Shown piece after piece: positions 10,827 to 41,514 of a DNA stretch of 64,000 bases. This DNA is from Lumbricus rubellus (Eukaryota; Annelida; Clitellata; Crassiclitellata; Lumbricidae): positions 36,665,524 through 36,729,523 of the forward strand of contig OX243814.1 in the NCBI GenBank assembly GCA_945859605.1. Direction: 5' to 3'. Each line of letters opens with the position of its first letter. The stretch's first letter is position 1. The translations under genes were made by a program, and so were the position numbers. Under the pieces are notes generated by a model. It worked only from the letters and a program-made list of their open reading frames with translations, was not told where the DNA came from and searched no databases.

Positions 10827-10887
10827 CGGATACCCTATTTTATAACCTTGTAAATTATGTTGTTTTAAGGCGAGCAACCATTATCAG

Positions 10888-12655: not shown

Positions 12656-12981
12656 GATCATCAAGCTTGAAAGAAAACTTTCTTGAAACGGACAGCACCA
12701 TGACGCCGGAGAAAAGTTTTATATCACCTGAGCAGGGCTACGACCTACGATCTAAAGAAGTAGTGTGTGACCTGGAATGTAGAAGACATAGCGAGGATGA
12801 GGAATCTTTAAGGAAGAGGAATGACTGGCATAGCAATGGGGATTTAAGCAAAAATGGCAGTACCGCCAATACGACAGAATGGGGGAAATCCAATGACAAC
12901 GTGTGGAGAACAACGTCCATGGTTGAGAATGAAAAATCAGAGAGCCAGATGGAGGAATCTGTGGGCGATGATGCGAAGGAA
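12656..12981 (+). CDS. CARD x3-coiled coil-anchor protein, exon 4, left part (interrupted by the Polinton)
   Basis: The acceptor TTCTTTAG ends at 12655. Residues 326-434 are polar and serine/glutamate-rich (GDDAKE at the end) and look like a disordered linker. The host frame breaks off at 12981, the end of the 6-bp target duplication AAGGAA, where the 15-kb Polinton begins. The frame resumes at 28156. Read through the insertion, translation would stop soon after entering the element (open frame to 13155), giving a protein without coiled coil or anchor. Confidence 0.72.
12976..12981. repeat. Polinton target-site duplication, left copy (AAGGAA)
   Basis: The six bases AAGGAA directly precede the left terminal repeat and recur at 28150-28155 directly after the right one. 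A 6-bp duplication is the standard for Polinton/Maverick insertion. Confidence 0.92.
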
Positions 12982-13064
12982 AGTAGATGTCTTTTTAATT
13001 TTCTGGATGTCTTTTATTATTTCCTGAGGGGGGTGCTCGGTAGTACAGTGGTTAGCGCGCTGGA
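12982..13064 (+). repeat. Polinton left terminal inverted repeat
   Basis: 83 bp matching the right end with one single-base indel (six versus five G) and a few substitutions. Its inner half, from TGCTCGGTAGTACAGTGG to CTGTCA, looks like the 5' half of a tRNA-Asp, including an A-box-like TAGTACAGTGGTTA. Left-end similarity to a tRNA extends to about 13080 (CCAAGAGGTC) but no T-arm follows. Confidence 0.9.
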
Positions 13065-13932
13065 CTGTCAACCAAGAGGTCTTTTATTATTCCACCCTCT
13101 GATTCCTCCTCTTCTCCTTTGGGGTATTTTATTATTTTTCCTGATGCATAATTAATTAGCTAGCTGATTTTAAAGAAGCCTGATATTGAAGAAACAATCA
13201 GCTAAAACCCAATTAACATTCTTGGTAGGAGCTACGGTAATGGTGATCAACGCTGATGCAAAACAACTGCAGAATACGGTATTGATCCACAGCATACTGA
13301 GCGAGTAGGCCTTGTATGCATGAGCGCTCATGCAGCAACCAAGCAACAAAGCAGCAGATGTCTCGATCACGACACAACAACCTGGCTGGGAACGGCCTCG
13401 ATCACGACAGCACGGCTAGGCTAGGACTATGAGTCGGCCAAGCATGCAGGTCGTTGGCTGACGTGGCTACCTTCGCCATGCATGCAGCCATCATTATAAT
13501 ATTATGACAATGCAAAAACACCTGAAGACAAAGTCTACACCTTGAACGATACGTATTCGTTGTAAGGGCGTCGCTCTAAACAGGTGTAGGCTACATCTTT
13601 TGGTTTTGCGAAAATTAGTTGCTGTATTAAATCGGATCAAAATGACTAACTTCATTAAGGATAGGCCTATCGAGGAACATCATCAAGAGCGACCTTCGTT
13701 GCTGCTGGATGAACAACAACTTGATCAGTTTCTATAATTGCACATGTTGCTTATTGGCACAGGTTGCTATACTGTTCTGACGTTTACTTAATCGGATCAT
13801 CTCGCCAACACCTGAGCGTGTAGCAGTGACATTGATTACCTGTAGGCTTATACATAGCCAGTGTTCATCATCCAACTATAATCATTCAGTTTTATCTTTT
13901 CATGGGACAATGGACTAACAAAAGCGAGAAAA
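13065..13932. other. Polinton left subterminal non-coding region
   Basis: About 870 bp without a gene. It contains two similar GCCTCGATCACGACA / GTCTCGATCACGACA words near 13355-13410 and one TAGGCCTA palindrome (13664-13671), otherwise a host-DNA signature. The right end of the element has only about 155 bp of non-coding DNA, so this asymmetry could mean a nested insertion, but no boundaries are visible. Confidence 0.4.
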
Positions 13933-14357
13933 CATTCCAGGGTGACTCTCATGTCAACGGACTATGTAGGTGCTCGTGTAAGGATATATATATATAGGTC
14001 TATAAAATCGATACATTCCTTGCATTCCAGGGTGACTCTCATGTCAACGGACTATGTAGGTGCTCGTGTAAGGATATATATATAGGTCTATAAAATCGAT
14101 ACATTCCTTGCATTCCAGGGTGACTCTCATGTCAACGGACTATGTAGGTGTTCGTGTAAGGATATATATATATATAGGTCTATAAAATCGATACATTCCT
14201 TGCATTCCAGGGTGACTCTCATGTCAACGGACTATGTAGGTGCTCGTGTAAGGATATATATATATAGGTCTATAAAATCGATACATTCCTTGCATTCCAG
14301 GGTGACTCTCATGTCAACGGACTATGTAGGTGCTCGTGTAAGGATATATATATAGGT
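13933..14357. repeat. Five ~90-bp tandem repeats in the Polinton left arm
   Basis: Units begin CATTCCAGGGTGACTCTC at 13933, 14023, 14111, 14203 and 14293. They are almost identical; the period varies from 88 to 92 bp because of a (TA)n run inside each unit. The last unit is shortened. A/T homopolymer-rich sequence fills 14358-14555 up to the end of the integrase gene. Confidence 0.92.
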
Positions 14358-14555
14358 GTTTTAGCAATTCTAAAAAGAAGACTTTTAAAATTTATTATTA
14401 TTTTATTTATTTATTTATTTATTTAATTAATTTTTTTTTTTATTTAATTTATTTTAAACTTTTTTTTTTATTGTTTTTTTTACTTTTTTTTTCTTAACTT
14501 TTTTATTTTTTTTTTATTTTTTTTTTTTAAACTTTTTTTTCAGCAAGAAGACCTC
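14358..14555. repeat. A/T-rich low-complexity DNA
   Basis: Runs of TTTA and long T tracts between the tandem repeats and the integrase stop codon. Assembly errors are likely here. Confidence 0.8.
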
Positions 14556-15539
14556 TTATAATTTTGGTATAATACTTATCAAATCCTTATTGTCAATCCA
14601 TGAATTGAAAGAATCATCATAGCCTAACCATTTAACCAAAGACCGATTTCCTCTTTTTCTTATAATCTTTTCTATTTTAAATGTATCTTGCGTTGTCGAT
14701 TGTAACTCAGCTTCATAAAATGTCCCTTTTATTTCTTCTCCATGATAGTCAGATATTTTATAGGTTATAGGGTCTGTGTATTGGATTTGTGTTATAGTAA
14801 AAATTTCTTGTGTCCAACGATTTGTGTAGCCTTTCTCAAATGTCTTTTTCTTCTTAGAAATTCTTACTTTATCTCCTACCGAAAATTTAGGTTTAACAGT
14901 TTCAGGTACAGCATCACCATACAGATTCATCCACACAACCCATTCGTTTGCTTTAACACTCGCTTTAACAGGAGTCATTTTAATGGAAGAATGTCTTGTG
15001 TTGTTGTATAAATTAACCATATTATCTAAAACATCGATATATCTCTGAGTTGAATTTGCTGTAAAATATTTAAACATTTTCTCTTTCACTGTTCTATTAA
15101 ATCTTTCTACGATACAAGATTTCTCTTCATTCTCAGTTGAGTACAACTGCATACCTAATGATTTTACCTGTTTATTATAGAATTCTGTTCCCTTATCAAC
15201 CCAAAGTTTTTCACCCCTTCTTTTGCTCGTATTAAATATTTTTGTGAAAGCATCTGCCACAGATTCTCCACGCTTATCTTTTATCGGAATAATCCATCCA
15301 TATTTTGAAAAAATGTCAATAACACTTAACAAATATTTCACACCAGAATTAAATTTAGCATAAGCCTGCATGTCAATCAAGTCTGCTGCCCAAACTTTGT
15401 CCACTCCCTGAACATAAACAACTCGCTTCCTGAACTTCCTGACTATAGGTTTATGTAATTCGTCAGCAAGTTGGTCTGTCCATCTCAGAGTTTTTTTTTC
15501 AACCCCATTCCAAAATGGGTTTTCGTTGATAAAATTGGT
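14556..15539 (-). CDS. Polinton integrase (retroviral-type core plus chromodomain)
   Basis: The minus-strand frame is open from 15539 to the stop at 14556. Its first ATG falls inside the catalytic core (AADLIDM), so translation must enter from upstream. Numbering from a GTG at 15404, the core shows D8 (WAADLIDM), D70 (WVDKGTEFYN) and E100 (IVERFNRT), the DDE triad of rve integrases. A chromodomain-like end (KIIRKRGNRSLVKWLGY, then SFNSWI) covers about 243-280. An HKP motif upstream of the core is typical of Polinton integrases. The frame overlaps the end of the PLA2 gene and is offset by -1 from it at an A9 run (15491-15499), so a -1 frameshift product or an indel is likely. It joins element ends to host DNA. 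Confidence 0.88.
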   Translation of the reverse strand, partial: TNFINENPFWNGVEKKTLRWTDQLADELHKPIVRKFRKRVVYVQGVDKVWAADLIDMQAYAKFNSGVKYLLSVIDIFSKYGWIIPIKDKRGESVADAFTKIFNTSKRRGEKLWVDKGTEFYNKQVKSLGMQLYSTENEEKSCIVERFNRTVKEKMFKYFTANSTQRYIDVLDNMVNLYNNTRHSSIKMTPVKASVKANEWVVWMNLYGDAVPETVKPKFSVGDKVRISKKKKTFEKGYTNRWTQEIFTITQIQYTDPITYKISDYHGEEIKGTFYEAELQSTTQDTFKIEKIIRKRGNRSLVKWLGYDDSFNSWIDNKDLISIIPKL

Positions 15540-16021
15540 TTAACTATAGATCTTTCAACTCGTTCGCGGAAAGAAGGATTAGGTATATTATTTAATTCAT
15601 CTATCATAGCTCTGTCAGCGACGTTTCTCCCTGCTGTATCAGTATGTTTAGCATAAGCCAGGTCATGACGATAGGCTGCTGCATCAACCCTATCTACTGG
15701 TTTACTCCAATCTTTTGGTGTTCCATCAGGATTCAATCTCAAATCCAATCGAGTACCTGGACCCGTGAAAGAATGTCCTGGAAGATGCATTTCACCCGGG
15801 TACTTTGCCCATGGAAGTTTAATATTAGAAGTAGCAGAATTGAGAGCTGAGACCAAATCACCACCTGTAGCGGTGGACATTTTAGTAAACTGAGTTTTTC
15901 TAGCGCCACACTCAACACATACACATCTAAGCATAGGTCTGCCATTCTTACTGACAACTCGTTGAATATCTCTACACTCAGTTTGTCGCTTACATTTTAC
16001 GCAATACGAGCTGTGCTCCAT
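15485..16021 (-). CDS. Zinc-ribbon plus parvovirus-type phospholipase A2-like protein
   Basis: 178 residues from the ATG at 16021. The N-terminus has paired cysteines C7/C10 and C33/C35/C38, a zinc-ribbon pattern. Residues 80-140 match the PLA2 domain of parvovirus VP1: a calcium-loop GPGT (87-90), the catalytic His-Asp pair in YRHDLAYA (H119, D120) and a later D136 in a helix (ADRAMIDEL). In parvoviruses this enzyme acts on endosomal membranes during entry; here that role is inferred. The C-terminus runs into an A9 tract that overlaps the integrase frame. The gene is divergent from the ATPase gene across only 20 bp. Confidence 0.82.
   Translation of the reverse strand: MEHSSYCVKCKRQTECRDIQRVVSKNGRPMLRCVCVECGARKTQFTKMSTATGGDLVSALNSATSNIKLPWAKYPGEMHLPGHSFTGPGTRLDLRLNPDGTPKDWSKPVDRVDAAAYRHDLAYAKHTDTAGRNVADRAMIDELNNIPNPSFRERVERSIVKPILSTKTHFGMGLKKKL
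15491..15499 (-). promoter_or_regulatory. Candidate -1 frameshift site (A9 tract)
   Basis: On the minus strand nine A residues form an A-AAA-AAA slippery heptamer four codons before the PLA2 stop codon. The integrase frame is the -1 frame at this point and has no ATG of its own before its catalytic core. A sequencing or replication indel in the homopolymer is the alternative. Confidence 0.5.
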
Positions 16022-16041
16022 TTTAATATAATATAATTAAA
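16022..16041. promoter_or_regulatory. 20-bp divergent A/T-only promoter region
   Basis: The ATG codons of the PLA2 gene (minus) and ATPase gene (plus) are 20 bp apart, and the gap is A/T only (TTAATATAATATAATTAAA). A/T-only tracts ending just before ATG also precede most other element genes, suggesting very short leaders. Confidence 0.45.
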
Positions 16042-16818
16042 ATGGAAGTCCAAGACCTATCATGGAATGAAGATACATCTAAACGCTTTAACAGTCCTCT
16101 CCTACCAAGAAGCATCAGAGGTTTGATCGTCGGTAAGTCTCAATGCGGCAAAACAATATTACTACTTAATTTATTACTGAGACCTGGTTGGTTAGACTAC
16201 GATAACCTGCAGATCTTTGGCAAAAGTTTATTTCAATCAGAATACAAGATACTTAAGAAAGCATTCGAAGAGAAATTACCAAAGGAAGCAATTATAAGAC
16301 TTTTTGATAATCGCGATGAGATAATGAAATTAAATGTATCACCGACCGCCGTAGTCGAGGAGATGTCTAAAAACATGGCCAAAAAATCGGATATAGAATG
16401 CAAGTTCTTTGAAACCTCTGAAGATGTTCCAGATCCACGAGACTTAAGTCGAGATAAAAAGAATCTCATGATTTTTGATGATTTACAATTAGAGAGGCAA
16501 AATAAATGCGAATCGTATTATATAAGAGGTAGGCATAGTAATGTAGACTGCTTTTACCTAGCACAAAATTATTTCAAGCTGCCCAGACAAACTATCAGGG
16601 AGAATGCCAATTTTATATGTCTATTCCCTCAAGACCTCAAAAATATTAATCATATATACAGCGATCATATAGGCGTAGATGATATGACTATTGAAGAATT
16701 TCGAAAACTATGCAAAACTGCGTGGGATGAAACGCATGGTTTTGTGGTTATAGACCTTACTAGTAAAACAAATAAGGGCAGGTACAGATCTGGATTAGAT
16801 ACATTTTACATTAAATAA
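16042..16818 (+). CDS. A32-type DNA-packaging ATPase
   Basis: 258 residues. A Walker A loop (GKSQCGKT, 31-38) follows a beta strand (RGLIV), and a Walker B strand NLMIFDD lies at 141-147. A later RGRHSNVDCFYLAQNYF segment (about 161-178) fits the sensor region of FtsK/HerA-type packaging ATPases of Polintons and giant-virus relatives, in which ATP hydrolysis drives genome loading into the capsid. Length is normal for Polintons. It is first in the rightward series; penton follows after 66 bp. Confidence 0.9.
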   Translation: MEVQDLSWNEDTSKRFNSPLLPRSIRGLIVGKSQCGKTILLLNLLLRPGWLDYDNLQIFGKSLFQSEYKILKKAFEEKLPKEAIIRLFDNRDEIMKLNVSPTAVVEEMSKNMAKKSDIECKFFETSEDVPDPRDLSRDKKNLMIFDDLQLERQNKCESYYIRGRHSNVDCFYLAQNYFKLPRQTIRENANFICLFPQDLKNINHIYSDHIGVDDMTIEEFRKLCKTAWDETHGFVVIDLTSKTNKGRYRSGLDTFYIK

Positions 16819-16884
16819 AAGCAATAATAAAATGATAACAAAATTTAAGATTTTATATTCTAGGTTTAAAAATAGCTATCTAAA

Positions 16885-17658
16885 ATGGAAACCTTTCTTG
16901 GCGAGATTTTATCTAATACTCAAACGATTGCACGCAACACAGACGCTAAAGAATCCTTTTGCATTTTGTTGAGCGAAAGGAACACACGAATTCGAACGAA
17001 ATTTAATCCACTAATCGAACTGGACAAAAGTAAAAAATATGAAATGGCCCTTGTTAATCTTGAAACGTACTACAGTTTTCCCAATATATACGAAACAAAT
17101 AATAAATTCGTATATTCGTCAGATAACGGTGTAACGTGGGAAGATTTAGACATTCCAACCGGTTGCTACGAAATCGATGACTTGAACGATTACATACAGA
17201 GAATTTTAAAGGAAGAAGGTCATGGTCAATGTATAAAGTTGCGACCAAATAACAACACGTTAAAGGCGGTTTTGGAAATTGATGAGAACTATAAAGTTGA
17301 TTTTACAGTAGAAAATTCAATTAGCACCGTTCTAGGATTTCAGCGTCGTGTATACTCCGAAGGATATAACGAATCCGAGCACATAGTCGATATAAACAGC
17401 GTGAATAGTTTACGAGTTACGAGTGATATAATAGGATCATCGTATGCTAACGGAACTACGGAGAACATAATTTATTCTTTCTTTCCATCGGTCGGGCCTG
17501 GTTATAAGATAATCGAATCTCCTCATAATCTGGTTTATCTTCCAATAACGCTATACTCTATTTCATCGATGGAAACAAAACTAATAGACCAAAATGGAAA
17601 ACTAATTAATTTAAGAGGTGAGGAATTGTCGATACGATTTCACATAAGAGAGGTTTAA
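16885..17658 (+). CDS. Penton-like minor capsid protein
   Basis: 257 residues with no enzyme motif. The C-terminal third reads YSFFPSVGPGYKI, NLVYLPITLYSI and LIDQNGKLINLRGEEL, a pattern I recognise from the Polinton minor (penton-type, single jelly-roll) capsid protein. By analogy it would occupy the five-fold vertices beside the hexon-like protein. It lies between the ATPase and the pX-like gene, a usual place. The start ATG is the first in frame after an A/T-rich leader. Confidence 0.75.
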   Translation: METFLGEILSNTQTIARNTDAKESFCILLSERNTRIRTKFNPLIELDKSKKYEMALVNLETYYSFPNIYETNNKFVYSSDNGVTWEDLDIPTGCYEIDDLNDYIQRILKEEGHGQCIKLRPNNNTLKAVLEIDENYKVDFTVENSISTVLGFQRRVYSEGYNESEHIVDINSVNSLRVTSDIIGSSYANGTTENIIYSFFPSVGPGYKIIESPHNLVYLPITLYSISSMETKLIDQNGKLINLRGEELSIRFHIREV

Positions 17659-17682
17659 TTTAAAGTTTATATTTAATATAAG

Positions 17683-18306
17683 ATGAGCGCTTACGCTAAG
17701 GTCAAAGTTAATATTTCTGAAGGGCAAAAAGAGAAGATTAAGCGAGCTGTTCAAGTCAGAACTGGGGTGAGTATAAGACTTTCTCATGAAGATATAACTG
17801 GTGAGCATGTATTAGCTCTAAACCAGAGGCAAATTAACAAGTTAACTAAAGCGTATCAGAATGGAACTGGTGTGACAATTAAAATGGGTAAAAAGCAATT
17901 AGAAGACAATGCGAGAGTCGAAGGCGGATTTATTGGCGCTATTCTACCGTTCTTAGCAACAGCTGGAAAGTTTCTTCTGTCTAGTGTTCTCCCGAGTTTA
18001 GCCACAGGAGCCTTAACAGGATTGGGTTCTGCAGCTGGTTCCAAAATTGTCGATAAAATAAGTGGATCTTCAATCTCACATCCGATAAGTGGATCAGGCG
18101 TGCTGTACGTTAAGAAAGGAGGAATATGCTGTAAGATAGTGCCTGCTGGGGAAGGTCTTTTTCTATCTCCGTGGAAAAAGGGTAGTTCGATATCGGGTTC
18201 TGGTCTGTTTATGAAAAGAGGAGCAGGATATATCAGCGGTGAAGGTCTTATCTTGGGACCCAATTCACCATTTAAAAATATTCCTATTCTTGGAATGTTA
18301 CTTTAA
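17683..18306 (+). CDS. pX-like minor virion protein (glycine-rich, membrane-active segment)
   Basis: 207 residues. The N-terminal 75 residues contain two related motifs (TGVSIRLSHEDI and TGVTIKMGKKQL). A glycine/alanine-rich hydrophobic segment (about 81-122: FIGAILPFLATAGKFLL, then SLATGALTGLGSAAG) is typical of the adenovirus pX/pVI-like proteins of Polintons. A basic C-terminus with repeated ISGSG words follows (about 127-175). The codons for SGSSISH (from about 18062) match a non-coding tandem repeat at 21820-21885. A role in core packaging or membrane penetration is inferred from family resemblance. Confidence 0.65.
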   Translation: MSAYAKVKVNISEGQKEKIKRAVQVRTGVSIRLSHEDITGEHVLALNQRQINKLTKAYQNGTGVTIKMGKKQLEDNARVEGGFIGAILPFLATAGKFLLSSVLPSLATGALTGLGSAAGSKIVDKISGSSISHPISGSGVLYVKKGGICCKIVPAGEGLFLSPWKKGSSISGSGLFMKRGAGYISGEGLILGPNSPFKNIPILGMLL

Positions 18307-18322
18307 AAAACCACTTATATAA

Positions 18323-18709
18323 ATGTCTGGATACGGTCACCCAATACACAAATTTATCACCAAACGGAAGCCTCGTGTGAGTCCGATAATTTGGATGCCT
18401 AAAGTGGTCACTCACGCTCCTGCAAGACAACGAGCAGGCGACAGATATGAGATTTTTGCTCAGCAAGCGATAACGATTGAACCAAAGACAAATATTACAG
18501 TAGAAGTAGGCCTTGGAGTCCGAATGACCAGTGGAATGTGTCTAGTCTCTCTTAGACAGAAGTTGAAACAACTCAGACTGAGCCTTCAAGATGGTACAGT
18601 ACTAGAGGACGCAGAGGATATAATAATTACAATACAAAACAACTCCGATTCACCAGTTACTATAAACGAAAAAGACTCCATATGTTATGTTAATTACTAC
18701 GATGCATAA
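18323..18709 (+). CDS. dUTPase-fold protein with lost catalytic motifs
   Basis: 128 residues. From residue 38 the strand order and spacing resemble trimeric dUTPases: AGDRYEIFA for motif 1, ITIEPKTNITVEVGLGVRM for the conserved beta strands, a GTVLEDAEDI segment where motif 3 (GxIDxDYxG) should be, then IIITIQNNSDSPVTI and ERDSI-like KDSICYV at the end. The active-site tyrosine/aspartate and the PRSG motif are absent. I infer a structural or regulatory role, as for other inactive dUTPase-fold virus proteins. It may instead be an unrelated jelly-roll protein; structure prediction would decide. Between the pX-like and DUF8207 genes. Confidence 0.5.
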   Translation: MSGYGHPIHKFITKRKPRVSPIIWMPKVVTHAPARQRAGDRYEIFAQQAITIEPKTNITVEVGLGVRMTSGMCLVSLRQKLKQLRLSLQDGTVLEDAEDIIITIQNNSDSPVTINEKDSICYVNYYDA

Positions 18710-18711
18710 AT

Positions 18712-18776
18712 TGTACGTTTTATGTTTACGTTTTATGTTTACGTTTTACGTTTACGTTTTACGTTACGTTTTAAAC
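18712..18776. repeat. ACGTTTT(A/T) tandem words between element genes
   Basis: About eight diverged units of 6-13 bp (TTTACGTTTTATG and shorter) fill the gap between the dUTPase-like stop and the DUF8207 leader. Confidence 0.8.
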
Positions 18777-18795
18777 ATTATACTTATAATAAAAA

Positions 18796-19695
18796 ATGTC
18801 ACTACTGAAAATTAGCGATCCTGCTAAAAGAGATTTTATTATCGAAGAGTTTTTAAAAACGAAAAAAAATATTAAACAAAACTTTCTCTCAGAGAGAATA
18901 GATGATCTTGGACTTCAACGAGAATTAACGAAAATCTACAAACCAATAGTCGACTCTCAATCAGCAATTTCGAAAGAACAAAACGCTTTGCTGTCGACAA
19001 TAAAGGATAATTCTGCAGCAACATCACTAGCTCTAAAAGCACTTCCAGATTCGTTGAAAACCATTCAATTTCCTCAGTATCCGTCTATAGAGGCATACGA
19101 CGACGATGACCCAGTAGAAGACATTAGAAGGTTAGAATTAGGAAATATTGCAGTTGAATACCTTAAAAAATATGCTTCTGATAGAAGACTTGTGGACACA
19201 ACATTCGGATTAAGATCAAGAGATGGAAAATTCTACATCGGTGACAGCGAAGCCTCAATCCAAGGAAATGATATTACAGTTGGAACCACAACTTATCAAG
19301 GAACTCCAGGATTATGGGAATTGTTAACGTTAGCTAGTCCAAACAGTTCAATTTATGATAATCGTGATCTCGAAGAATACGCCGAGATTCTAACTAAAAC
19401 GAATGCCATGAGTCAGCCAAATAAACCAAACAAACCTAAATCGTCTAGAAGTGTAAAATATGCAAAGATAATAAAACCCATATGGGACGATTACATAAAG
19501 TTAAGAGGTAAAACAGGAAGCGGAATAATTACCATTCCTTCAGATCCAAATGAATTAGTAAAACAATTAGAGTTGCGAATATATAGCTACAAAGCGGGAA
19601 ATACGGGTGTAAGAAATGAAATTGTAGGTATGACGGATGAGTTACTAAGACAAGGAGTGATAACCAAAGATGAATATAAAAAATTGATGATCTAA
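18796..19695 (+). CDS. DUF8207-type Polinton protein
   Basis: 299 residues. The N-terminal 70 residues are charged and helical. Residues 143-180 read FYIGDSEASIQGNDITVG, then TYQGTPGLWELLTL, the hallmark of a conserved but uncharacterised Polinton-encoded domain (DUF8207) common in animal genomes. The C-terminal part (KYAKIIKPIWDDY, LVKQLELRIYSYKAGN) also fits. Function is unknown; the location among capsid genes suggests a virion or assembly protein. The stop codon lies in the first unit of a short tandem repeat. Confidence 0.75.
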   Translation: MSLLKISDPAKRDFIIEEFLKTKKNIKQNFLSERIDDLGLQRELTKIYKPIVDSQSAISKEQNALLSTIKDNSAATSLALKALPDSLKTIQFPQYPSIEAYDDDDPVEDIRRLELGNIAVEYLKKYASDRRLVDTTFGLRSRDGKFYIGDSEASIQGNDITVGTTTYQGTPGLWELLTLASPNSSIYDNRDLEEYAEILTKTNAMSQPNKPNKPKSSRSVKYAKIIKPIWDDYIKLRGKTGSGIITIPSDPNELVKQLELRIYSYKAGNTGVRNEIVGMTDELLRQGVITKDEYKKLMI

Positions 19696-19735
19696 TTTAA
19701 AAATTGATGATCTAATTAAAAATTGATGATATAGA
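19682..19735. repeat. Triplicated AAAATTGATGATCTAA word over a stop codon
   Basis: AAATTGATGATCTAA occurs three times (last copy ends ATATAG). The first copy encodes the end and stop of the DUF8207 gene, so each duplication adds a spare stop codon without altering the protein. Confidence 0.85.
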
Positions 19736-19736
19736 A

Positions 19737-20090
19737 ATGCTGGTCGTTGCGAGAAGAAGTTATAAAAAAGTACACGTTGTCGGTGGAGCAGGAATATTCG
19801 ATTCCATTGCAGGATTTCTCAAGAGGCTACTGACATCGAATGCAGCCAAACAAATTGCGAGCACAGCCGTCAAAGAGATTGGGAGTGTTGCTAAGGATAA
19901 GGCGATCGACGTTGGAAAACGATTACTCAATAAGATACTCCCACCAACCACCGTTCAGCAGCCTATAACTCAGGAAACTAAAGTCATTCTAGCTAGATTA
20001 CTAGGATCGAATCCGCAAATGACGGGAGGAGCTATTAGAATTCAAGATCTCGTAAAACGCTTAAACGGAGGTGGTTTGAAAATGGCTTAA
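19737..20090 (+). CDS. pVI-like small virion protein (amphipathic)
   Basis: 117 residues, basic. A GGAGIFDSIAGFLKRLL segment (16-32) predicts an amphipathic helix, followed by an alanine-rich helix (AAKQIASTAVKEIG). A glycine-rich end (GGGLKMA) closes the protein. Such small proteins with an N-terminal amphipathic helix accompany the hexon gene in Polintons and resemble adenovirus pVI in layout. The start ATG at 19737 sits only 2 bp after the repeat above. The assignment is by layout and composition; there is no catalytic motif. Confidence 0.55.
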   Translation: MLVVARRSYKKVHVVGGAGIFDSIAGFLKRLLTSNAAKQIASTAVKEIGSVAKDKAIDVGKRLLNKILPPTTVQQPITQETKVILARLLGSNPQMTGGAIRIQDLVKRLNGGGLKMA

Positions 20091-20141
20091 GGTTAATTTT
20101 CTTATTTAGGTGTAAAAATTTATTTTCTTATTTAAAAATAT

Positions 20142-21452
20142 ATGTATTATAAAATGCAATCCGATATTCTAAGATTCACAGAGCAACCATTGATCGATGA
20201 AGGTATCGAGCGATACGAATGGCACGAGTACGAACCTGTAGCGAGAACTAACCTTAACAGTTCTGGTGAAATAAGAATAAATATTGAATTACAAGACTTA
20301 TACAGTCACCCAGCAGAGTCATATCTACAATTCGAAGGAAGACTAATTAAAACCGATGACACCGCATACGTTAATGCCGATTTAGTCGCTCTTACGAATA
20401 ATGGGCTTATGTATCTATTCAGTCAAATATCCTATCAGTTATCTAATCAAGAAATCGAAACGCTATTTCATCCGGGTCAAGCTACAACGATGCTTGGTTT
20501 ACTTACGTATCCAAACGATTTTCAGCTGACTCAAGGCTTAAATCAACTGTGGTATAAAGACACTGGAGCGACTGCTGTTATTGCGGACAACCCCGGATTT
20601 GCCACTAGACAAAGCTTTCTCATTCGCAAACCAAACACTAAAGGAATGTTCAGCTTTATTGTTCCGTTGAAGCATATTTTCGGGTTTTGCGATGATTACG
20701 ACAAGATTATTTACGGCTTCAAACAGACGCTGACATTAGTTCGTAAAGCCGACGATGATGCAATATTCCGAGATAACGCTGCAGCTGCTGGAAAAGTTGC
20801 GATAAACAAAATTTCATGGTTTATTCCACACGTTATTCCTTCCGATATGGAACGAATGCAGTTGTATAAGACGATTGAATCAAAATTAACGTTGCCAGTT
20901 GCGTATAGAGCTCGTCAATGCGACACGATAACAGTTCCTCAGTCGACAAGTTTCAGTTGGCGTCTTAGCGTAAAAACATCACCTGAGAAACCTAGATATA
21001 TCATTGTAGGATTTCAGACGGACCGTAGCGGTAATCAGGAAAGTAATCCGTCGCTATTTAATCACTGCGATCTCAAGAACATATATGTGATGATGAATCA
21101 AGAAAGATATCCAGCTGTCGATCATAACCTGTCGTTTCCTAATCAACAATTCTCCAGAGCGTACAGAGACGCGTCCTCCTTTAGTCAAAAATTCTATGGT
21201 ATGGATAAGTTGATTACGCAAGGAAATATAACACCTATAGATTATAAAGAATTATATCCGCTGTTCGTGTTCGATGTAAGCAAACAATCCGAGCGTTTGA
21301 AATCTTCAGTCGTCGATATTCAGATTAAGGCTCTTTTCAATGCAGCAGTGCCAGCCGACACCGAAGCGTATGCTGTCGTAATTTCAGATAGGTTGCTGCA
21401 GTTCCAATCGGATGGGCAGAAAATGAGTGTAGTGTATGGAAAATTGATTTAA
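20142..21452 (+). CDS. Hexon-like major capsid protein (double jelly-roll)
   Basis: 436 residues from ATG 20142; the next ATG (20154, MQSDILRF) gives 432 residues and lies right after a TATTATAAA tract, so it is the likelier start. The sequence matches the Polinton major capsid family, often annotated in animal genomes as F54H12.2-like: LNSSGEIRINIELQD, SQISYQLSNQEIE, FQLTQGLNQLWYKD and IVPLKHIFGFCDDYDK are characteristic. The protein forms trimers that build the icosahedral shell. Length is normal and the frame intact. Confidence 0.9.
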   Translation: MYYKMQSDILRFTEQPLIDEGIERYEWHEYEPVARTNLNSSGEIRINIELQDLYSHPAESYLQFEGRLIKTDDTAYVNADLVALTNNGLMYLFSQISYQLSNQEIETLFHPGQATTMLGLLTYPNDFQLTQGLNQLWYKDTGATAVIADNPGFATRQSFLIRKPNTKGMFSFIVPLKHIFGFCDDYDKIIYGFKQTLTLVRKADDDAIFRDNAAAAGKVAINKISWFIPHVIPSDMERMQLYKTIESKLTLPVAYRARQCDTITVPQSTSFSWRLSVKTSPEKPRYIIVGFQTDRSGNQESNPSLFNHCDLKNIYVMMNQERYPAVDHNLSFPNQQFSRAYRDASSFSQKFYGMDKLITQGNITPIDYKELYPLFVFDVSKQSERLKSSVVDIQIKALFNAAVPADTEAYAVVISDRLLQFQSDGQKMSVVYGKLI

Positions 21453-21468
21453 AGAATACTTATATATT

Positions 21469-21798
21469 ATGAAGCTACCAGAGCTTAGAATGTTAGCCAA
21501 GCATCACGATGTTACAGGCACTTCGCATCTCAACAAACCTCAAATGATAGCTGTACTGATTGAAAAGAATATTCTTCCGACGGACTACAAGTCTGTGTCA
21601 TATCGACATGACACGTTGGGTAGTATCAGGAAACAACCGAGAAGAGTAGATATTATAGATCGAGAAACTGGCGTTGTTACCTCGTATCCATCGATGTATA
21701 AAGCTGCTAAGGCGTATGGTCAGAGTGCTGGTATAATAGCTTATCATAACGGAAATGTCTGGAGAGATAGATACGAAATTAAAGTGTATGAGAGATAA
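21469..21798 (+). CDS. Small DNA-binding protein with SAP-like and NUMOD1-like segments
   Basis: 109 residues, 16 bp after the capsid gene. Residues 3-35 (LPELRMLAKHHDVTGTSHLN..MIAVLI) fit the SAP helix-extension-helix pattern. Residues 65-100 (VTSYPSMYKAAKAYGQSAGIIAYHNGNVWRD) fit a NUMOD1-type helix-turn-helix, known from homing endonucleases. No nuclease motif is present. A DNA-binding role in regulation or packaging is inferred. The combination is unfamiliar to me. Confidence 0.6.
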   Translation: MKLPELRMLAKHHDVTGTSHLNKPQMIAVLIEKNILPTDYKSVSYRHDTLGSIRKQPRRVDIIDRETGVVTSYPSMYKAAKAYGQSAGIIAYHNGNVWRDRYEIKVYER

Positions 21799-21819
21799 AA
21801 ATGACATGAAATTAGTGGA

Positions 21820-21885
21820 TCTTCGATCTCACAGATAAGTGGATCTTCGATCTCACAGATAAGTGGATCTTCGATCTCACATGTT
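21820..21885. repeat. 26-bp tandem repeat (AGTGGATCTTCGATCTCACA), 2.7 copies
   Basis: Three AGTGGATCTTCGATCTCACA units separated by GATA lie between the SAP-like gene and PolB. The word is nearly identical to codons in the pX-like gene (AGTGGATCTTCAATCTCACA from about 18061). Confidence 0.85.
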
Positions 21886-21911
21886 TTAATATTTTTGCGT
21901 GGTAAGATAAA

Positions 21912-24900
21912 ATGGATTTAAAGAAAAGTAGTTTAAGAAACATGAACCATGTTGAACACTTGCTCGACTCGCCGGTTCCTGACATTAAGGTTCCTACGCT
22001 TACGCCTACACCTGGTAAATACAAACCAGTAGCGCCTAAGAGAAAATACAAAAATAGGGTTAGAGCTAAAATAAATGATTTTGCGGATTGGTTACTTAGT
22101 TATGTGCCTGAACAAGACAATAAAGTCGTTAACGAAAAACTGGAATCATTGAAGTCAACTGTTTCCAGGATATTTGATAAAATTAAAATTCGAGAAACGG
22201 CGTCGGCTATTAAAGGATTTACCAAGCAATATAGAATAGATGGAATTAATGGAATGGATGCCTCGTCGTTTCTTGATTTCGTCAGACCGCAGGTAGTTAA
22301 TCTGTTGTCGAGTAATCGCCAAACAAAGGTTAATCTAGTTCTTACTTGTAATATGGAACGAGTAGATATGAAATCTGGAATAGTGACTTCTGAGGATATA
22401 CCATTCGTTTCCAGGGCAGAAGTTATTTTAGAAGCAACCGACTTGAATGAAATATACAGCAGAAAGAAGGATAAAATCATGGAGTCTATTGCTAGTTTTC
22501 AGATGCAAGGAAGTAATTGGAGATTTAAAGCTGTTGTAAAATTAGATATCAATACGGTAAAATATACCCCCTTAAGAGGTAGTTCTTACATTCCGCTTCC
22601 CAACTTTTTAGCTAATAAAAAGGCTATTATAAATATGAAAAACGACGACGAAGAATGCTTCAAATGGTGTATCACTAGAGCTTTGAATCCGGTTGTGAAA
22701 AATCCGGAAAAAATAACGAAAGCTTTGAAAGAACAATCGAAAAAACTTAATTGGAGTGGCATTGAGTTTCCAGTTGCTGTTGATGCTAATGTGATAGGTA
22801 GGTTCGAGAGAAATAATAATATTAATGTTAATGTATTCGGTTATGAAAAAGAAGTATACCCGCTTTATCTGTCTAAGTGTGAAAGTAGTATTGATCTTTT
22901 GCTTATATCTGATGGAGAAAAAAAACATTATTGCTGGATCAAGAATTTTAACAGATTGATGAGATTTCGGACTAATTCGATGTATGATTGTAAAAGGTGT
23001 ATGAATGGTTTCACAACGACAGGAGCGCTTAAAAACCATAATGAGTACTGCAAACTCCATAACGCACAAAAAATAGAAATGCCACCACCAGGAACTATGC
23101 TAAGTTTTAAAAATTATAACAATTCTATGAGGGTTCCGTTTATAGTCTACGCAGATTTTGAGTCTTTTGTAAAACCGATCGATACATGCCAACCAAATCC
23201 AGAGTTGTCGTACACTAATAAATATCAAAAGCATATTCCTAGCTCCTTTTGTTACCACATAAAATGTTTCGACGATAGTGTATATTCTCAAGATCCTGTG
23301 ACGTTTACGGCTGAAAGCGAAGATGATGATGTTGGTCAAATATTTGTAGATAAACTAGAAGAGAATATAAAACAAATATATAATCAATTTAAATTCCCTA
23401 AGAAGATGATATTTACAGAAGAGGACAAGAAGTGTTTTGATGGAGCTACTATATGCCATATCTGTGAAAAACCGTTGGGCGAAGACCGAGTGAGAGATCA
23501 CTGTCATCTTAGCGGTAAATTTAGAGGGGCTGCTCATAACATTTGTAATTTAGACTAAAAAGTCCCCAAGTTTTTCCCTGTAGTGTTTCATAATCTTTCC
23601 GGGTACGATTGTCATCTGTTCATTAAGAAACTGAGAGGTAATAATGGAGAGAAAATTAATTGCATACCTAATAACGAGGAAAAGTATATATCTTTTAGCA
23701 GAGAGGTCGTTGTTGATAAGTTTGTAAATAAAGAGGGAAAAGAGATTACCGTCAAGCGACAACTGCGTTTTATCGACAGTTTTAAATTTATGGCTTCTAG
23801 TCTTGATGCTTTATCGAGGAACCTAAGCAAAGACCAGTGTAAAAATATTGGGAAACGATATACTGGAAAGAAGCTCGATCTTTTGCTGAGAAAAGGCATA
23901 TATCCTTATGACTACGTCGATTCATTTACTACCTTTAATGAAACCGAACTACCACCAAAATCCGCATTCTATTCTAAGCTAAATGATTCGAATATTAGCG
24001 ATGAAGACTACGAGCATGCAAAAACGGTATGGAAGGAATTTGGATGCAAAACATTCAGAGAATATCACGATTTATACAACGTTTCGGATGTTCTGTTACT
24101 TGCCGATGTTTTCGAAAACTTTAGAGATGTGTGTATGAAGAACTATACGCTTGACCCTGCATGGTATTTTACATCTCCTGGTTTAGCCTGGGATGCCGCT
24201 TTAAAATTGACAGGCGTGAAATTGGAGTTATTGAATGATTATGATATGATTCTGATGCTTAGGCAAGGGATGAGAGGAGGAGTGAGCACAATATCAAATC
24301 GTTACGGGAAAGCGAATAATAAATATATGAGCGATTTCAATAGTAACGAAAATTCTACATTTATTACTTACCTGGATGCGAATAATCTATATGGATGGGC
24401 TATGATCAAAAATTTACCTACTCACGGGTTCAAATGGATGAACGAAGATGAATTAAATAATTGGAGAAGTATTCCATGCATATTGGAAGTTGATTTGGAA
24501 TATCCTAAAGAGTTACACGACCTGCATAACGATTTTCCGTTAGCCCCCGAAAGCATTGAGATTAACAAAGTCAAAAAGTTAATTCCAAACTTAAACCATA
24601 AAAAGAAGTATGTGCTGCATTACGATAATCTGAAGCTGTATGAGAGCTTGGGTTTGAAAATAACAAAAGTGCATAGAGGTGTACTATTCGAAGAAAGTGA
24701 TTGGTTGAAAAAGTATATCGATTTAAATACAGCTCTTAGAACGAAAGCTACTAATGACTTTGAGAAAGACTTTTTCAAGTTAATGAATAACAGTGTCTTT
24801 GGAAAAACTTGTGAGAACATTGAAAATCGTGTTGATGTAGAGTTAGTGTGTCAAGAGGAGAGGGCTATTGAACTAGCCGCTAAACCTAATTATGAGAGAT

Positions 24901-25568
24901 GTACTATTTTCGATGAAAATCTAATAGCCGTTCACATGAAAAAAACTAAATTGTACTATAATAAACCTATATATCTTGGCATGTGTATATTAGACTTGAG
25001 CAAAACGTTGATGTATGAATTTCATTACAATTACATCAAGGATAAATACGGAAATAGAGCTAAATTATTATTTACCGATACAGATTCTTTGACATACGAA
25101 ATTAAAACTGAAGACTTTTACTCAGATATCGCAGGCGATATTAAGACTCGATTCGACACGAGTGAATACCCGAGAGATCATCCATCTGGTATTGAGGTTG
25201 GAGTAAATAAAAAAGTTATTGGAATGTTCAAGGATGAAGCTAGTGGGAAACAGATAAAAGAATTTATTGGACTCAGAGCAAAGTTGTATTCTTATAAGAT
25301 GGCTGCTGGAGATGAGCACAAGAAATGTAAAGGTATTAAGAAGAATGTTGTCCAGAAAACTATTACTCACGAAGATTATAAAGACTGTTTATTTACTAAA
25401 AAAGAACAACAACGAACGATGAATGTTATTAGATCTTATCATCAAGATATTTATACAGAAGAAATTAATAAAGTTGCATTGTCCGCAGATGACGATAAAC
25501 GGGTAATAATGGAGGATGGAATTCATACTTTGGCATATGGTCACTACTCGTTGAAAATTTTTAATTAA
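21912..25568 (+). pseudogene. Protein-primed family B DNA polymerase with one in-frame stop
   Basis: A single frame runs from ATG 21912 to 25568 (1,219 codons) with one internal TAA at 23556-23558 and no frameshift. Upstream part: C2H2-like finger C360/C363/H376/C380, exonuclease motif YADFES (D415, E417) and an HNH-like Cys/His cluster (C515, C518, H530, H542, C545). Downstream part: polymerase motif A LDANNLYGWAM (D822), motif B NNSVFGKTCEN (about 959-969) and motif C TDTDS (D1056, D1058). These define the Polinton replicative polymerase, which starts from a protein bound at the DNA ends. The stop would separate exonuclease from polymerase domains, so this copy is probably inactive unless read through or misassembled. 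Confidence 0.9.
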
Positions 25569-25584
25569 TGTTTATATTAAATAA

Positions 25585-26007
25585 ATGAGCGTCAAACAAA
25601 TCGATGTTTGTGGAGTAGTGCTACCGAATATTGCTTTATCGAATTTTGAATTATTGGATGCCGCGAAGAAGCTGAATATTCCGAATTTTAGAGGCGTTTT
25701 CGTGCGAGACGAGCTGCCGAATAAACCTAGACGGATTGAATGTGGGATATTGAATCTAGACGATTCTAAAGGAACCGGTCAGCATTGGTGCGCTTTCTTA
25801 AAGAGCGGTAACGAGAAAATATATTTCGATAGTTACGGCCTTCCTCCCCCTCTGGAACTGATAAAGTATTTACGCCGTCCAGTGTTATATAACAGTGAGC
25901 GAATACAACCCGATAACGAAGTATTTTGTGGTCATTTGTGTCTGTATGTGACGAAGATGGTGGGTGATGGAATGAATTTTCAAGAAGTTATAAACGGCTT
26001 GCATTAA
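25585..26007 (+). CDS. Adenain-type cysteine protease
   Basis: 140 residues, 16 bp after PolB. It has H67 (GQHWCAFL), D82 (YFDSYG), Q108 and C115 (FCGHLC), in the order His-acid-Gln-Cys of the adenovirus maturation protease; the Gln to Cys distance of seven residues is the same as in adenovirus. The family cleaves capsid precursor proteins during virion maturation. Short length is usual for Polinton proteases, and no break is seen. Confidence 0.9.
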   Translation: MSVKQIDVCGVVLPNIALSNFELLDAAKKLNIPNFRGVFVRDELPNKPRRIECGILNLDDSKGTGQHWCAFLKSGNEKIYFDSYGLPPPLELIKYLRRPVLYNSERIQPDNEVFCGHLCLYVTKMVGDGMNFQEVINGLH

Positions 26008-26036
26008 AAATTATTATATATAGATATATATATAAA

Positions 26037-26807
26037 ATGCCTGTCGATAAATTTGGTCACACCGCTGCTGGAGGAACATCACGAAGAGTAATCGCTGGAG
26101 GTGTTACTCTTAGCCAAGTAAATGCTAATTTTCTTCGATTGGATGGGGCAAATCTGCCGACTGGAAATCTAAATATGAATGGATGTGTGATAAAAGGTCT
26201 CCCAGGAACGAATACTTCGACTGCCGGAATGGATGAAGCTTTAAGTAGGGGGCAAGCCATTGATTTGATAACGAATCACAACGATTCTCCGTCCAACGAT
26301 AATCATTTGACGAATAAGAAATACGTTGATGAACAAGTTACAAAGTACGTCGATAAATCTCTGAAAAAGTGCCATGTTGGATATATTCCTCCCTTGGAAG
26401 CTGATGTAAGTGTGACAGGATTCGTTGCTAGTGCCAGTGAGTGTTTATCCGGAAGCAAAGCCTACCATGCTTTCACTAATCTCAAGGACGATGTTAACAC
26501 AGCTTGGAATTCAGGTCAAGTAATGGCTTGGTTACAAATTAAATGTCCTGAGCCAGTTAAAATTTGGAGAATTGCGATGAAAACCGTATCTGTAGCTTAT
26601 TTCGATTTTGACGCTAGCAATGATGGAGTAGTGTTTGAAAAATTACCCATATTCCCTTCTTCAACGAATTCACCGGCTGTTCCGAGATTTTGTAATATTA
26701 CTAGACCTATGGGTGCGTATCAATATTACAGAGTTACATCAACGCAAGTGGATGATTTTTCTCCACGAGGGATTCAGGTAATGCAATTATATGTATACGA
26801 TGACTAA
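26037..26807 (+). CDS. Fiber-like protein 1 with discoidin-like head
   Basis: 256 residues, directly after an A/T-only leader ending TATATAAAATG. Residues 1-105 (VIAGGVTLSQVNANFLRLDG, GNLNMNGCVIKGLP, LTNKKYVDEQVT) follow the pattern of phage-type tail-fiber shafts and are almost identical to the start of the next gene. The C-terminal ~145 residues (VMAWLQIKCPEPVKIWRI, FDFDASNDGVVFEKL, YQYYRVTSTQVDD) resemble an F5/8C (discoidin, galactose-binding-like) domain. I infer a receptor- or glycan-binding spike; this is not shown by sequence alone. Confidence 0.65.
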   Translation: MPVDKFGHTAAGGTSRRVIAGGVTLSQVNANFLRLDGANLPTGNLNMNGCVIKGLPGTNTSTAGMDEALSRGQAIDLITNHNDSPSNDNHLTNKKYVDEQVTKYVDKSLKKCHVGYIPPLEADVSVTGFVASASECLSGSKAYHAFTNLKDDVNTAWNSGQVMAWLQIKCPEPVKIWRIAMKTVSVAYFDFDASNDGVVFEKLPIFPSSTNSPAVPRFCNITRPMGAYQYYRVTSTQVDDFSPRGIQVMQLYVYDD

Positions 26808-26837
26808 TCTGCATTAAAAATTATTATTATATATAAA

Positions 26838-27911
26838 ATGCCTGTCGATAAATTCGGTCACACCGATGTTGGTTCATCACAAAGAGTAATCGCTGGAGGT
26901 GTTACTCTTAGTCAAGTAAATGCTAGTTTTCTTCGATTGGATGGAGCAAACATCGCGACTGGAAATTTAAAAATGGGTGGTCACAAAATTAAAGGACTAC
27001 CAACAACGAAACCTTTGACAGCAGCAATGGATGAGGCTTTAAGTTGGGGTCAAGCCATTGATTTGATAACAAATCACGACGATTCTCCGTCCAACGATAA
27101 TCATTTGACGAATAAGAAATACGTTGATGAACAAGTTACATTGAAGGTGTCTAAAACTGGTGATACCATGACTGGTGATCTAATCTTAAACGTTGGCTCC
27201 GATCGTCTGCGTTCAATGGGTTGTAAGGACTTGAGAGGAGAAAATAAAGAATTCACTATTTTCTTAGGTAGTATACGAAATAAACTACAATGTTCGTTAA
27301 ACAATCCTATTACATTACAATCGATGGATGGATTTCGTTTTAGAATAAACAATGAAATCATGTTAGAGATGGTTAAGTCACTCGATGGCACTCCTCCGTC
27401 TAAAATAAATGTGTATAAGTCCATCTTTATGCATGATGCTTACATTACAGGACTACACGAACCCAACAACGCCAGCGATGCAGCTACGAAGCAGTATGTA
27501 GATTCTATCTCAATCGGTCCCGCGCTTAGCATTCATTCTTTAACTTGGCAATTCTTAATCGCTAAAACTCACACAAGAGTTACTTTCGATAGTGTAAGAT
27601 TCAAAACCGATGGTGTCATAAGTGCGGGACTGACCCGTTTCACTCCCGGTAAAGCCGGATACTATTTCGTTTCGACGTACATAGAATTTGGTAACAGTAG
27701 TACCGCTCCTGGTAACGTCTACCTGTATAGAAATGGGGCGAATTACATGCAAATTGCGGGCGGAGGGGGAACGGGAGCTGCGTTTAACAATTCAACCGGT
27801 AGTTGCATAATTTTCGTAACCAATACCGATTTTCTCGAGATATTCGCTTATTCGCACATCGCACTAAATATATTAGCTAGAGACTTTTCGGCAGTATTCT
27901 TACGACCTTAA
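26838..27911 (+). CDS. Fiber-like protein 2 with C1q/TNF-like head
   Basis: 357 residues, 30 bp after fiber 1 and with the same leader. Residues 1-105 duplicate fiber 1. A middle segment contains TGDTMTGDLILNVG and ITGLHEPNNASDAATKQYVD, further fiber-shaft repeats. The C-terminal ~130 residues (VTFDSVRFKTDG, TRFTPGKAGYYFVS, NVYLYRNGA, DFLEIFAY) match a C1q/TNF-type jelly roll, a common trimeric fiber head. The shared base with different heads suggests two alternative spikes made by gene duplication and head exchange. Confidence 0.68.
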   Translation: MPVDKFGHTDVGSSQRVIAGGVTLSQVNASFLRLDGANIATGNLKMGGHKIKGLPTTKPLTAAMDEALSWGQAIDLITNHDDSPSNDNHLTNKKYVDEQVTLKVSKTGDTMTGDLILNVGSDRLRSMGCKDLRGENKEFTIFLGSIRNKLQCSLNNPITLQSMDGFRFRINNEIMLEMVKSLDGTPPSKINVYKSIFMHDAYITGLHEPNNASDAATKQYVDSISIGPALSIHSLTWQFLIAKTHTRVTFDSVRFKTDGVISAGLTRFTPGKAGYYFVSTYIEFGNSSTAPGNVYLYRNGANYMQIAGGGGTGAAFNNSTGSCIIFVTNTDFLEIFAYSHIALNILARDFSAVFLRP

Positions 27912-28067
27912 TTTTTAACTGGTTTTAACTGGTTTATTAGCTGATATTTTCTTCAATGGAAAACACCCCCCAGCTTATCCTTTAGCGCCATTTTTAACTG
28001 ATATTTTAGCTGATATTTTCTTCAATGAAAAAAATCCCAGAAAATTAAAAAGACATCTAATTTCCAC

Positions 28068-28149
28068 TCCAGCGCGCTATCCACTGTACTACCGAGCACC
28101 CCCTCAGGAAATAATAAAAGACATCCAGAAAATTAAAAAGACATCTACT
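28068..28149 (-). repeat. Polinton right terminal inverted repeat
   Basis: 82 bp, the reverse complement of the left end, finishing GACATCTACT at 28149. A shortened extra copy of the terminal word (GAAAATTAAAAAGACATCTAA) lies just inside at about 28040-28060. TTTTAGCTGATATTTTCTTCAATG is present twice between 27937 and 28027. Confidence 0.92.
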
Positions 28150-28155
28150 AAGGAA
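28150..28155. repeat. Polinton target-site duplication, right copy (AAGGAA)
   Basis: Identical to 12976-12981. Removing the element and one copy leaves the host frame continuous. Confidence 0.92.
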
Positions 28156-41512: not shown

Positions 41513-41514
41513 GT

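What the first reader, a model, noticed from the sequence alone, without database searches (positions are those of the whole stretch)
12976..28155. Intact-looking Polinton inserted in frame inside a coding exon of a CARD immune-type gene
The 6-bp duplication AAGGAA, the 83/82-bp terminal repeats and the host codons on both sides are all visible. Removing 15,168 bp plus one AAGGAA restores a continuous host frame with exact phase (12976-12981 joins 28156). The insertion point falls between the linker and the coiled coil of a putative CARD signalling protein. A virus-like element disrupting a candidate antiviral adaptor, with little decay, is unusual and suggests a recent and perhaps polymorphic insertion.
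Basis: partly seen in the sequence, partly recalled or inferred. Interest (0 to 1): 0.92.

Follow-up and report, generated by a model that had tools for sequence, protein, structure and literature searches.

The report
Young Polinton burst split CARD gene
A virus-like jumping element, one of at least 150 closely related copies in its genome, sits inside a predicted exon of a single-copy CARD gene, likely inserted recently, and its integrase is predicted to be made by a ribosomal frameshift.

Summary
The insertion is real. A 15,168-bp Polinton-type element (12982-28149) lies between two exact AAGGAA copies and has 83/82-bp inverted ends. Without it, one open host frame runs through predicted exon 4 of a CARD gene. 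A search of the 787-Mb assembly finds no second locus above 52% identity and no empty allele.

Corrections: the copy is not fully intact. Its polymerase-like gene has a private in-frame stop: none of 66 other top-scored copies has its frame length, and 59 are open over at least 1,200 codons. An antiviral role of the host gene is untested.

The larger find is the family: at least 150 places with 99-100% identical capsid or polymerase-like protein, 34 complete elements with one exact end sequence, and 30 of 30 examined with identical 6-bp duplications. The PLA2 and integrase genes overlap in a -1 frame at an A-rich run in 51 of 56 junctions. I predict that -1 frameshifting makes a PLA2-integrase protein; a stimulating RNA structure was not shown.

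The parts
8649..8940 (+). host predicted exon 1 (weak CARD)
   Evidence: Pfam CARD E 0.025, below cut-off; 50-52% paralogs on contig C14
10870..11151 (+). host predicted exon 2 (CARD)
   Evidence: Pfam CARD E 6.1e-11, above cut-off
11425..11844 (+). host predicted exon 3, unknown domain
   Evidence: open frame and splice-like edges; no family above cut-off
12656..12981 (+). host predicted exon 4, left part
   Evidence: open frame, AG edge
28156..28552 (+). host predicted exon 4, right part, Lys/Glu-rich, possibly coiled coil
   Evidence: open frame, GT edge; heptad test weak
12976..12981 (+). target-site duplication AAGGAA, left
28150..28155 (+). target-site duplication AAGGAA, right
12982..13064 (+). 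left terminal inverted repeat, 83 bp
   Evidence: its first 48 bp occur 86 times exactly in the genome
28068..28149 (-). right terminal inverted repeat, 82 bp
12982..13155 (+). host frame read on into the element: 57 codons, hydrophobic, then a stop
   Evidence: best 19-residue mean hydropathy 2.08
13933..14357 (+). subterminal tandem repeats of about 90 bp
14556..15490 (-). integrase frame after the A run (rve, chromo)
   Evidence: Pfam rve 2.3e-6, chromo 2.6e-4, both below cut-off; 5805 relatives
15491..15499 (-). run of nine A, candidate -1 slippery site between PLA2 and integrase frames
15485..16021 (-). DUF5679 and PLA2-like protein
   Evidence: Pfam 9e-11 and 5.7e-10, above cut-off
16042..16818 (+). 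packaging-type ATPase
   Evidence: Pfam Pox_A32 4.4e-7, above cut-off
16885..17658 (+). candidate minor capsid/penton protein (position and recall only)
   Evidence: no family above cut-off
17683..18306 (+). unknown, glycine-rich C-terminus
18323..18709 (+). unknown, faint dUTPase-like match
   Evidence: E 0.015, below cut-off; 0.017
18796..19695 (+). unknown
19737..20090 (+). unknown small protein
20142..21452 (+). [quoted passage not shown]
   Evidence: Pfam PF21738 1.2e-57; 96 copies scored in own genome, this one included, all 99-100%
21469..21798 (+). small Rho_N-like protein
   Evidence: E 2.6e-4, below cut-off
21912..23558 (+). polymerase-like gene, N part (endonuclease VII-like), ends in a private in-frame stop
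23583..25568 (+). polymerase-like gene, C part, same frame as the N part
25585..26007 (+). candidate cysteine protease (recalled motif spacing)
   Evidence: no family hit
26037..26807 (+). fibre-like protein 1
   Evidence: N-terminal 108 residues 79% identical to fibre 2; weak F5/8-type C match below cut-off
26838..27911 (+). fibre-like protein 2
   Evidence: faint match to a phage tail fibre, E 0.28

Best explanation
A 15,168-bp Polinton-type element, one of at least 150 closely related copies in this genome, lies between an exact 6-bp duplication inside a predicted coding exon of a single-copy CARD gene, most likely placed there recently by the family's own integrase, which is predicted to be made as a PLA2-integrase fusion by -1 ribosomal frameshifting. 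Shown: duplication, inverted ends, host phase, the copy family, the conserved -1 overlap and the private stop. Inferred: the integrase made a 6-bp staggered cut, and the filled-in gaps became the duplication. The allele would encode a protein truncated before exon 4's second half, with a 57-residue hydrophobic tail read from the element. The copy itself likely needs polymerase from other copies to multiply.
For: Duplication, ends and host phase. Family: 96 capsid copies scored of 1569 candidates, window included, all 99-100% and open; 67 polymerase-like copies scored of 1994 candidates, all 99-100%; 150 distinct places in the union, overlap 13. Complete copies: 34 inverted pairs of one exact 48-bp end, 14.7-19.3 kb, window included; 30 of the 33 others were examined and 30 of 30 have identical 6-bp duplications. 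In a first sample of 20 copies both ends were seen in 7, and 7 of 7 match, one of them (CTCGAT) on only four bases of the left side. Purifying selection: 28 pairs of 8 capsid genes differ by 0-40 nt but 0-3 residues. Youth: 0 of 180 duplication bases differ, upper bound 1.65%; the nearest of 9 polymerase-like C parts compared differs by 4 of 1983 nt. Frameshift: of 61 places looked at (window and 60 copies), 56 gave a junction and 51 have the -1 offset; the first two Lys codons of the run are AAA in 102 of 102 cases while the third is AAA 27, AAG 20, AAC 4; no ATG in the integrase frame before the run in 51 of 51. Third codon positions hold most differences in the PLA2 frame before the run and in the integrase frame after it. 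Five of 120 listed relatives carry DUF5679, PLA2 and rve in one protein.
Against: No transcript, protein or read data. The scored lists are the best matches only, so the share of open copies is biased upwards. Stem after the run: z -1.3 to -2.3 in three foldings of the window, and median -1.3, range -1.9 to +0.3 over 19 distinct sequences; 438 of 456 pair cells stay paired but none through changes on both sides. All 51 junctions keep a CTG codon in the integrase frame just before its conserved part, a possible non-AUG start. Three of the 51 have an integrase frame that closes within 36 codons. Copies are related, so counts are not independent. No library names the polymerase-like protein and its model is poor.
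Confidence: 0.78

Rival explanations
1. The integrase is translated separately from a CUG or other non-AUG start right after the PLA2 gene, and the A run is only part of the PLA2 tail.
For: A CTG codon stands in the integrase frame in 51 of 51 -1 junctions; several relatives are called as separate proteins that start at about this point.
Against: It does not explain why the first two Lys codons never vary to AAG while the third does in 20 of 51, nor the one-frame PLA2-integrase relatives.
Confidence: 0.22
2. The host gene was already dead, so the element landed in a pseudogene and disrupts nothing.
For: No expression data; a match to exon 4 was found nowhere else in the genome, so its coding status rests on an open frame and splice-like edges.
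Against: The predicted exons are open with matching splice phases; joined exon 4 is open over 240 codons, 0 of 2000 shuffles.
Confidence: 0.12
3. An old insertion that is fixed in the species, with duplications kept by chance.
For: No empty allele found in the assembly; a private stop is present.
Against: 0 differences in 180 duplication bases over 30 other copies, and none in the window's own; open-frame decay estimate 0.16% (95% 0.004-0.87%), if all frames were open at insertion.
Confidence: 0.12
4. Assembly artefact at one or both junctions.
For: The family is repetitive, which invites misjoins.
Against: Exact duplication plus restored host phase, and 30 of 30 other copies examined with the same end structure.
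Confidence: 0.02

Closest known systems
Polinton/Maverick elements (Polintoviricetes)
   Same: 6-bp duplications, inverted ends, rve integrase, packaging ATPase, double jelly-roll capsid protein; vertebrate elements with 6-bp duplications and intact genes are described in PMC8097293 (passages read)
   Different: PLA2 and integrase overlap in a -1 frame; two fibre-like genes; 59 copies in a capped list with a polymerase-like frame of at least 1200 codons, against a maximum of 38 intact copies per vertebrate genome in PMC8097293 (a stricter definition of intact)
Polintons with a parvovirus-type PLA2 domain
   Same: PLA2 in some Polintons is stated in PMC4642659 and in a figure legend of PMC3671162 (passages read)
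   Different: a link to the integrase by frame overlap is not in the passages read
Adintoviruses
   Same: integrase with chromodomain; PMC11071296 suggests -1 frameshifting in some penton genes (passages read)
   Different: their definition there needs an OTU-like domain in PolB, not found here; the overlap here is at the integrase
Retroviral Gag-Pol (recalled)
   Same: an A-rich slippery heptamer and -1 overlap would put an enzyme behind a particle protein
   Different: DNA element; upstream protein is PLA2-like; no RNA structure shown

Membership tests
Polinton/Maverick | 6-bp target-site duplication | tested here: met
   window; 30 of 30 other complete copies examined, of 33 located
Polinton/Maverick | terminal inverted repeats | tested here: met
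   83/82 bp; 34 inverted pairs genome-wide
Polinton/Maverick | retrovirus-like (rve) integrase | tested here: met
   Pfam rve E 2.3e-6 though below its cut-off; 5805 relatives of 6278 candidates, most of the 120 listed bear rve
[quoted passage not shown]
   exonuclease and DTD-type residues recognised from recall and in line with the residues given in PMC3511435 (passages); 7990 relatives among the 7990 candidates scored; no library names it; model too poor to judge
Polinton/Maverick | packaging ATPase | tested here: met
   Pox_A32 30 bits, cut-off 22.8
[quoted passage not shown]
   PF21738 E 1.2e-57
Polinton/Maverick | cysteine protease and minor capsid protein | tested here: inconclusive
   candidates by position and recall; no family above cut-off
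Adintovirus | PolB with N-terminal OTU-like domain (definition in PMC11071296) | tested here: not met
   no OTU match at E up to 1 in the 548-residue N part; a very divergent one could be missed
programmed -1 frameshift site | slippery heptamer between overlapping frames, kept across copies | tested here: met
   51 of 56 junctions; codon tally
programmed -1 frameshift site | conserved downstream stem or pseudoknot | tested here: inconclusive
   z -1.3 to -2.3, +0.3 to -1.9 across copies, 438 of 456 cells paired, no compensatory changes; pseudoknots not searched
programmed -1 frameshift site | fusion product made | not testable with these tools
   no protein data
CARD protein | CARD domain | tested here: met
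   exon 2 E 6.1e-11, above cut-off; exon 1 only 0.025, below it

The most novel reading that the evidence does not exclude
This DNA element works like a retrovirus at one step: -1 frameshifting makes a small share of its membrane-entry PLA2 protein carry the integrase, so that the enzyme rides in the particle and integrates on arrival. A living burst of such particles is now cutting up the genes of its host, here turning a CARD signalling protein into one with a hydrophobic, tail-anchor-like end, an architecture like that of MAVS.
Probability: 0.25. Interest if true: 0.85.

Novelty: new variant of a known kind. Interest (0 to 1): 0.62.

Why it matters
A genome with at least 150 closely related Polinton copies, 59 of 66 scored polymerase-like frames being open and duplications exact in 30 of 30 copies examined, is a chance to catch the group while it moves; particles of the related Mavericks had not been observed when PMC8097293 was written (start of its abstract). 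The conserved PLA2/integrase overlap gives a testable account of how integrase could enter a particle. The CARD exon insertion is a ready marker for asking whether the insertions are still polymorphic.

Tried and rejected
Transfer RNA or other RNA family in the terminal repeat: a resemblance to a tRNA 5' half was recalled, but ARAGORN and Rfam at its gathering scores found nothing in the window, and three chance-level Rfam matches (E 2.1-9.8) lie inward of the repeat. Relatives in IMG/VR and GTDB contigs: nothing close; one IMG/VR contig with a 44% polymerase-like relative, L001. Relatives of the joined host protein in the protein database: one, 27% over 23% of the query (only the 7994 candidates sharing most words were scored). 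A stimulating RNA structure: not shown. Fold of the polymerase-like C part: mean pLDDT 41, so the Foldseek list is meaningless. Capture-recapture gives about 470 copies, but both lists are top-scored and not random, so I claim only at least 150. Not in print, as far as searched: the listings (20 of 98 papers shown; 20 of 27; 4 of 4; 15 of 174; 12 of 86; 9 of 9; 10 of 24; 1 of 1) show no title or abstract start on a PLA2-integrase frameshift or a Polinton in a CARD gene; beyond that only the passages named were seen.
Full report
1. The observation. AAGGAA stands on both sides (12976-12981, 28150-28155), the ends are inverted over 83/82 bp with one gap and one substitution, and the element is 15,168 bp. 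With the element and one AAGGAA left out, host exon 4 is one open frame of 240 codons; 0 of 2000 base shuffles of that stretch are open. I predict four exons, 8649-8940, 10870-11151, 11425-11844 and 12656-12981 plus 28156-28552, with splice-like edges in one phase. Exon 2 is a CARD (E 6.1e-11), exon 1 a weak one (E 0.025, below cut-off), exon 3 unnamed. A crude heptad test of the right part of exon 4 is not significant: 82 of 500 shuffles reach it.

2. The host gene in its genome. The window lies in a 787-Mb assembly of 368 contigs. A search with the joined host protein finds the window's own exons at 88-99% and, elsewhere, only matches of 30-52%, all starting in the CARD part, on contigs C14, C7, C4 and C21 (29 matches from 76 scored of 220 candidates). 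So no second copy of this gene and no empty allele was found. This does not show that the insertion is fixed: one assembly usually shows one allele.

3. What the element carries. Pfam names, above its cut-offs, a DUF5679 plus PLA2 protein, a poxvirus A32-type ATPase and a double jelly-roll capsid protein and, below its cut-offs, an integrase core with a chromodomain and an endonuclease VII-like stretch in the polymerase-like gene (also phrog_423, E 2.8e-6). The polymerase name rests on motifs that I recognise from memory and on the residues listed in PMC3511435 (passages read): no library names it, and the model is too poor to judge. Protease and penton are candidates by position and recall only. 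Two neighbouring fibre-like genes share 79% over their first 108 residues and differ beyond.

4. How intact it is. The polymerase-like frame is split by an in-frame stop at 23556-23558; both halves are in one frame and align to longer relatives, one of which, P0129, runs on across this place without a break. The stop is private: of 66 other copies scored, 59 have an open frame of at least 1200 codons, seven are shorter (708-1145), and none has the window's 669. These are the best-scoring copies of a capped list, so the open share is an upper view. In a sample of 20 copies, taken from the capsid list, all 20 are open across this place, while 3 of 20 are broken elsewhere in the C part. Copies with this gene open therefore exist; this one is likely defective.

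5. The family. The capsid protein finds 96 scored copies (the window's included) out of 1569 candidates, all 99-100% identical in protein and open. Eight of them differ by 0.3-4.2% in DNA over 4.3 kb. The capsid and polymerase lists together hold 150 distinct places. One exact 48-bp end occurs 86 times (40 forward, 46 reverse; 0 in the reversed control) and makes 34 inverted pairs, the window's included, 14.7-19.3 kb long. I examined 30 of the 33 other pairs, and 30 of 30 have identical 6-bp duplications, 29 different words. In the earlier sample of 20 copies both ends were seen in seven, and all seven match (in one, CTCGAT, the left stretch held only four bases). Other copies bear different outer end sequences.

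6. Selection and age. Eight capsid genes differ pairwise by 0-40 of 1308 nt but 0-3 residues, so differences between copies built up while the protein was in use. In the C part of the polymerase-like gene the nearest of 9 gapless copies (of 20) differs by 4 of 1983 nt; in the protease (7 of 20 gapless, that nearest copy not among them) and the second fibre gene (18 of 20) other copies are nearest, which hints at recombination. Pooled duplications of 30 copies differ in 0 of 180 bases, 95% upper bound 1.65%. One stop among 642 stop-prone site equivalents gives 0.16% decay (95% 0.004-0.87%), if all frames were open at insertion.

7. The PLA2/integrase overlap. The integrase frame here has no ATG before its first catalytic Asp (residue named from recall). 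It lies at -1 to the PLA2 frame, across a run of nine A. I looked at 61 places (window and 60 copies): 5 gave no junction, and of 56 found, 51 have the -1 offset, 3 another offset, and 2 read as one frame. In the 51, the first two Lys codons are always AAA (102 of 102), while the third is AAA 27, AAG 20, AAC 4; nine other genes of the window's element use AAG for 68 of 225 Lys. Changes within the first nine bases thus fall only on the last base of a canonical A-type slippery heptamer (heptamer rule recalled). Before the run, differences sit mostly on third positions of the PLA2 frame (8126 of 11832; 492 of 1225 pairs of 50 copies kept, pairs over 12% different, taken as out of register, dropped); after it, on third positions of the integrase frame (31335 of 47528; 1127 of 1225 pairs kept). 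Against uniformity: three of the 51 have an integrase frame that closes within 36 codons of the run (L057, L069, L072), and two have a PLA2 frame open for fewer than 150 codons (L069, L072); for many copies the fetched piece ends inside the integrase gene. Among 120 listed relatives, five carry DUF5679, PLA2 and rve in one protein (P0150, P0151, P0211, P0228, P0252). A downstream stem exists on paper, with z of -1.3 to -2.3 in the window and median -1.3, range -1.9 to +0.3, over 19 distinct sequences; 438 of 456 pair cells stay paired (30-50% when slid) but none through changes on both sides. A CTG codon kept in 51 of 51 leaves a non-AUG start as the main rival.

8. What the insertion likely does. 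Host translation reading into the element would add 57 residues and stop; the tail holds a 19-residue stretch of mean hydropathy 2.08 in this frame only (best 0.27 and 0.85 in the two others). That makes a truncated CARD protein with a membrane-anchor-like end possible. The likeness to MAVS is recalled and speculative, and T-rich DNA favours hydrophobic readings.

9. Verdict. The insertion is a new case of a known kind. The young family and the conserved -1 overlap between PLA2 and integrase are the parts that go beyond it.

Noticed in passing
window 26037-27911; L030-L049: Two adjacent fibre-like genes in 20 of 20 copies examined (in one the second runs off the fetched piece). The first is short (254-256 residues) in 6, long (364-369) in 13 and interrupted in 1: a length polymorphism like a variable fibre shaft.
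   Followed up: partly
window 12982-13064; L011-L029: The ends that were found start with AGTAG and share an inner part, but the outer 27 bp come in at least three versions, with subterminal repeats of the end.
   Followed up: partly
G000 C8:15278026-15324143: Two complete elements about 14 kb apart have the same CATCAT duplication and CAT-repeat flanks, either one segmental duplication or two hits in a microsatellite.
   Followed up: no
G000 C9:502160-516297: Three copies of the exact end motif in the same direction at an exact 7,045-bp spacing, perhaps a tandem array of a derivative.
   Followed up: no
window 41155-41586: An immunoglobulin V-set exon (E 1.1e-8) downstream of the CARD gene.
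   Followed up: no
window 33176-33784 (-) and 36444-36899 (+): Possible transposase remnants: the first has a weak DDE_3 match below cut-off, the second none (the second named from recall).
   Followed up: no
L001: A 15-kb IMG/VR contig with a continuous 1313-residue frame holding a 44% relative of the polymerase-like protein.
   Followed up: no
whole window: TAGGCCTA-type words seen while reading; from recall this hints at an echinoderm host. Not counted or tested.
   Followed up: no
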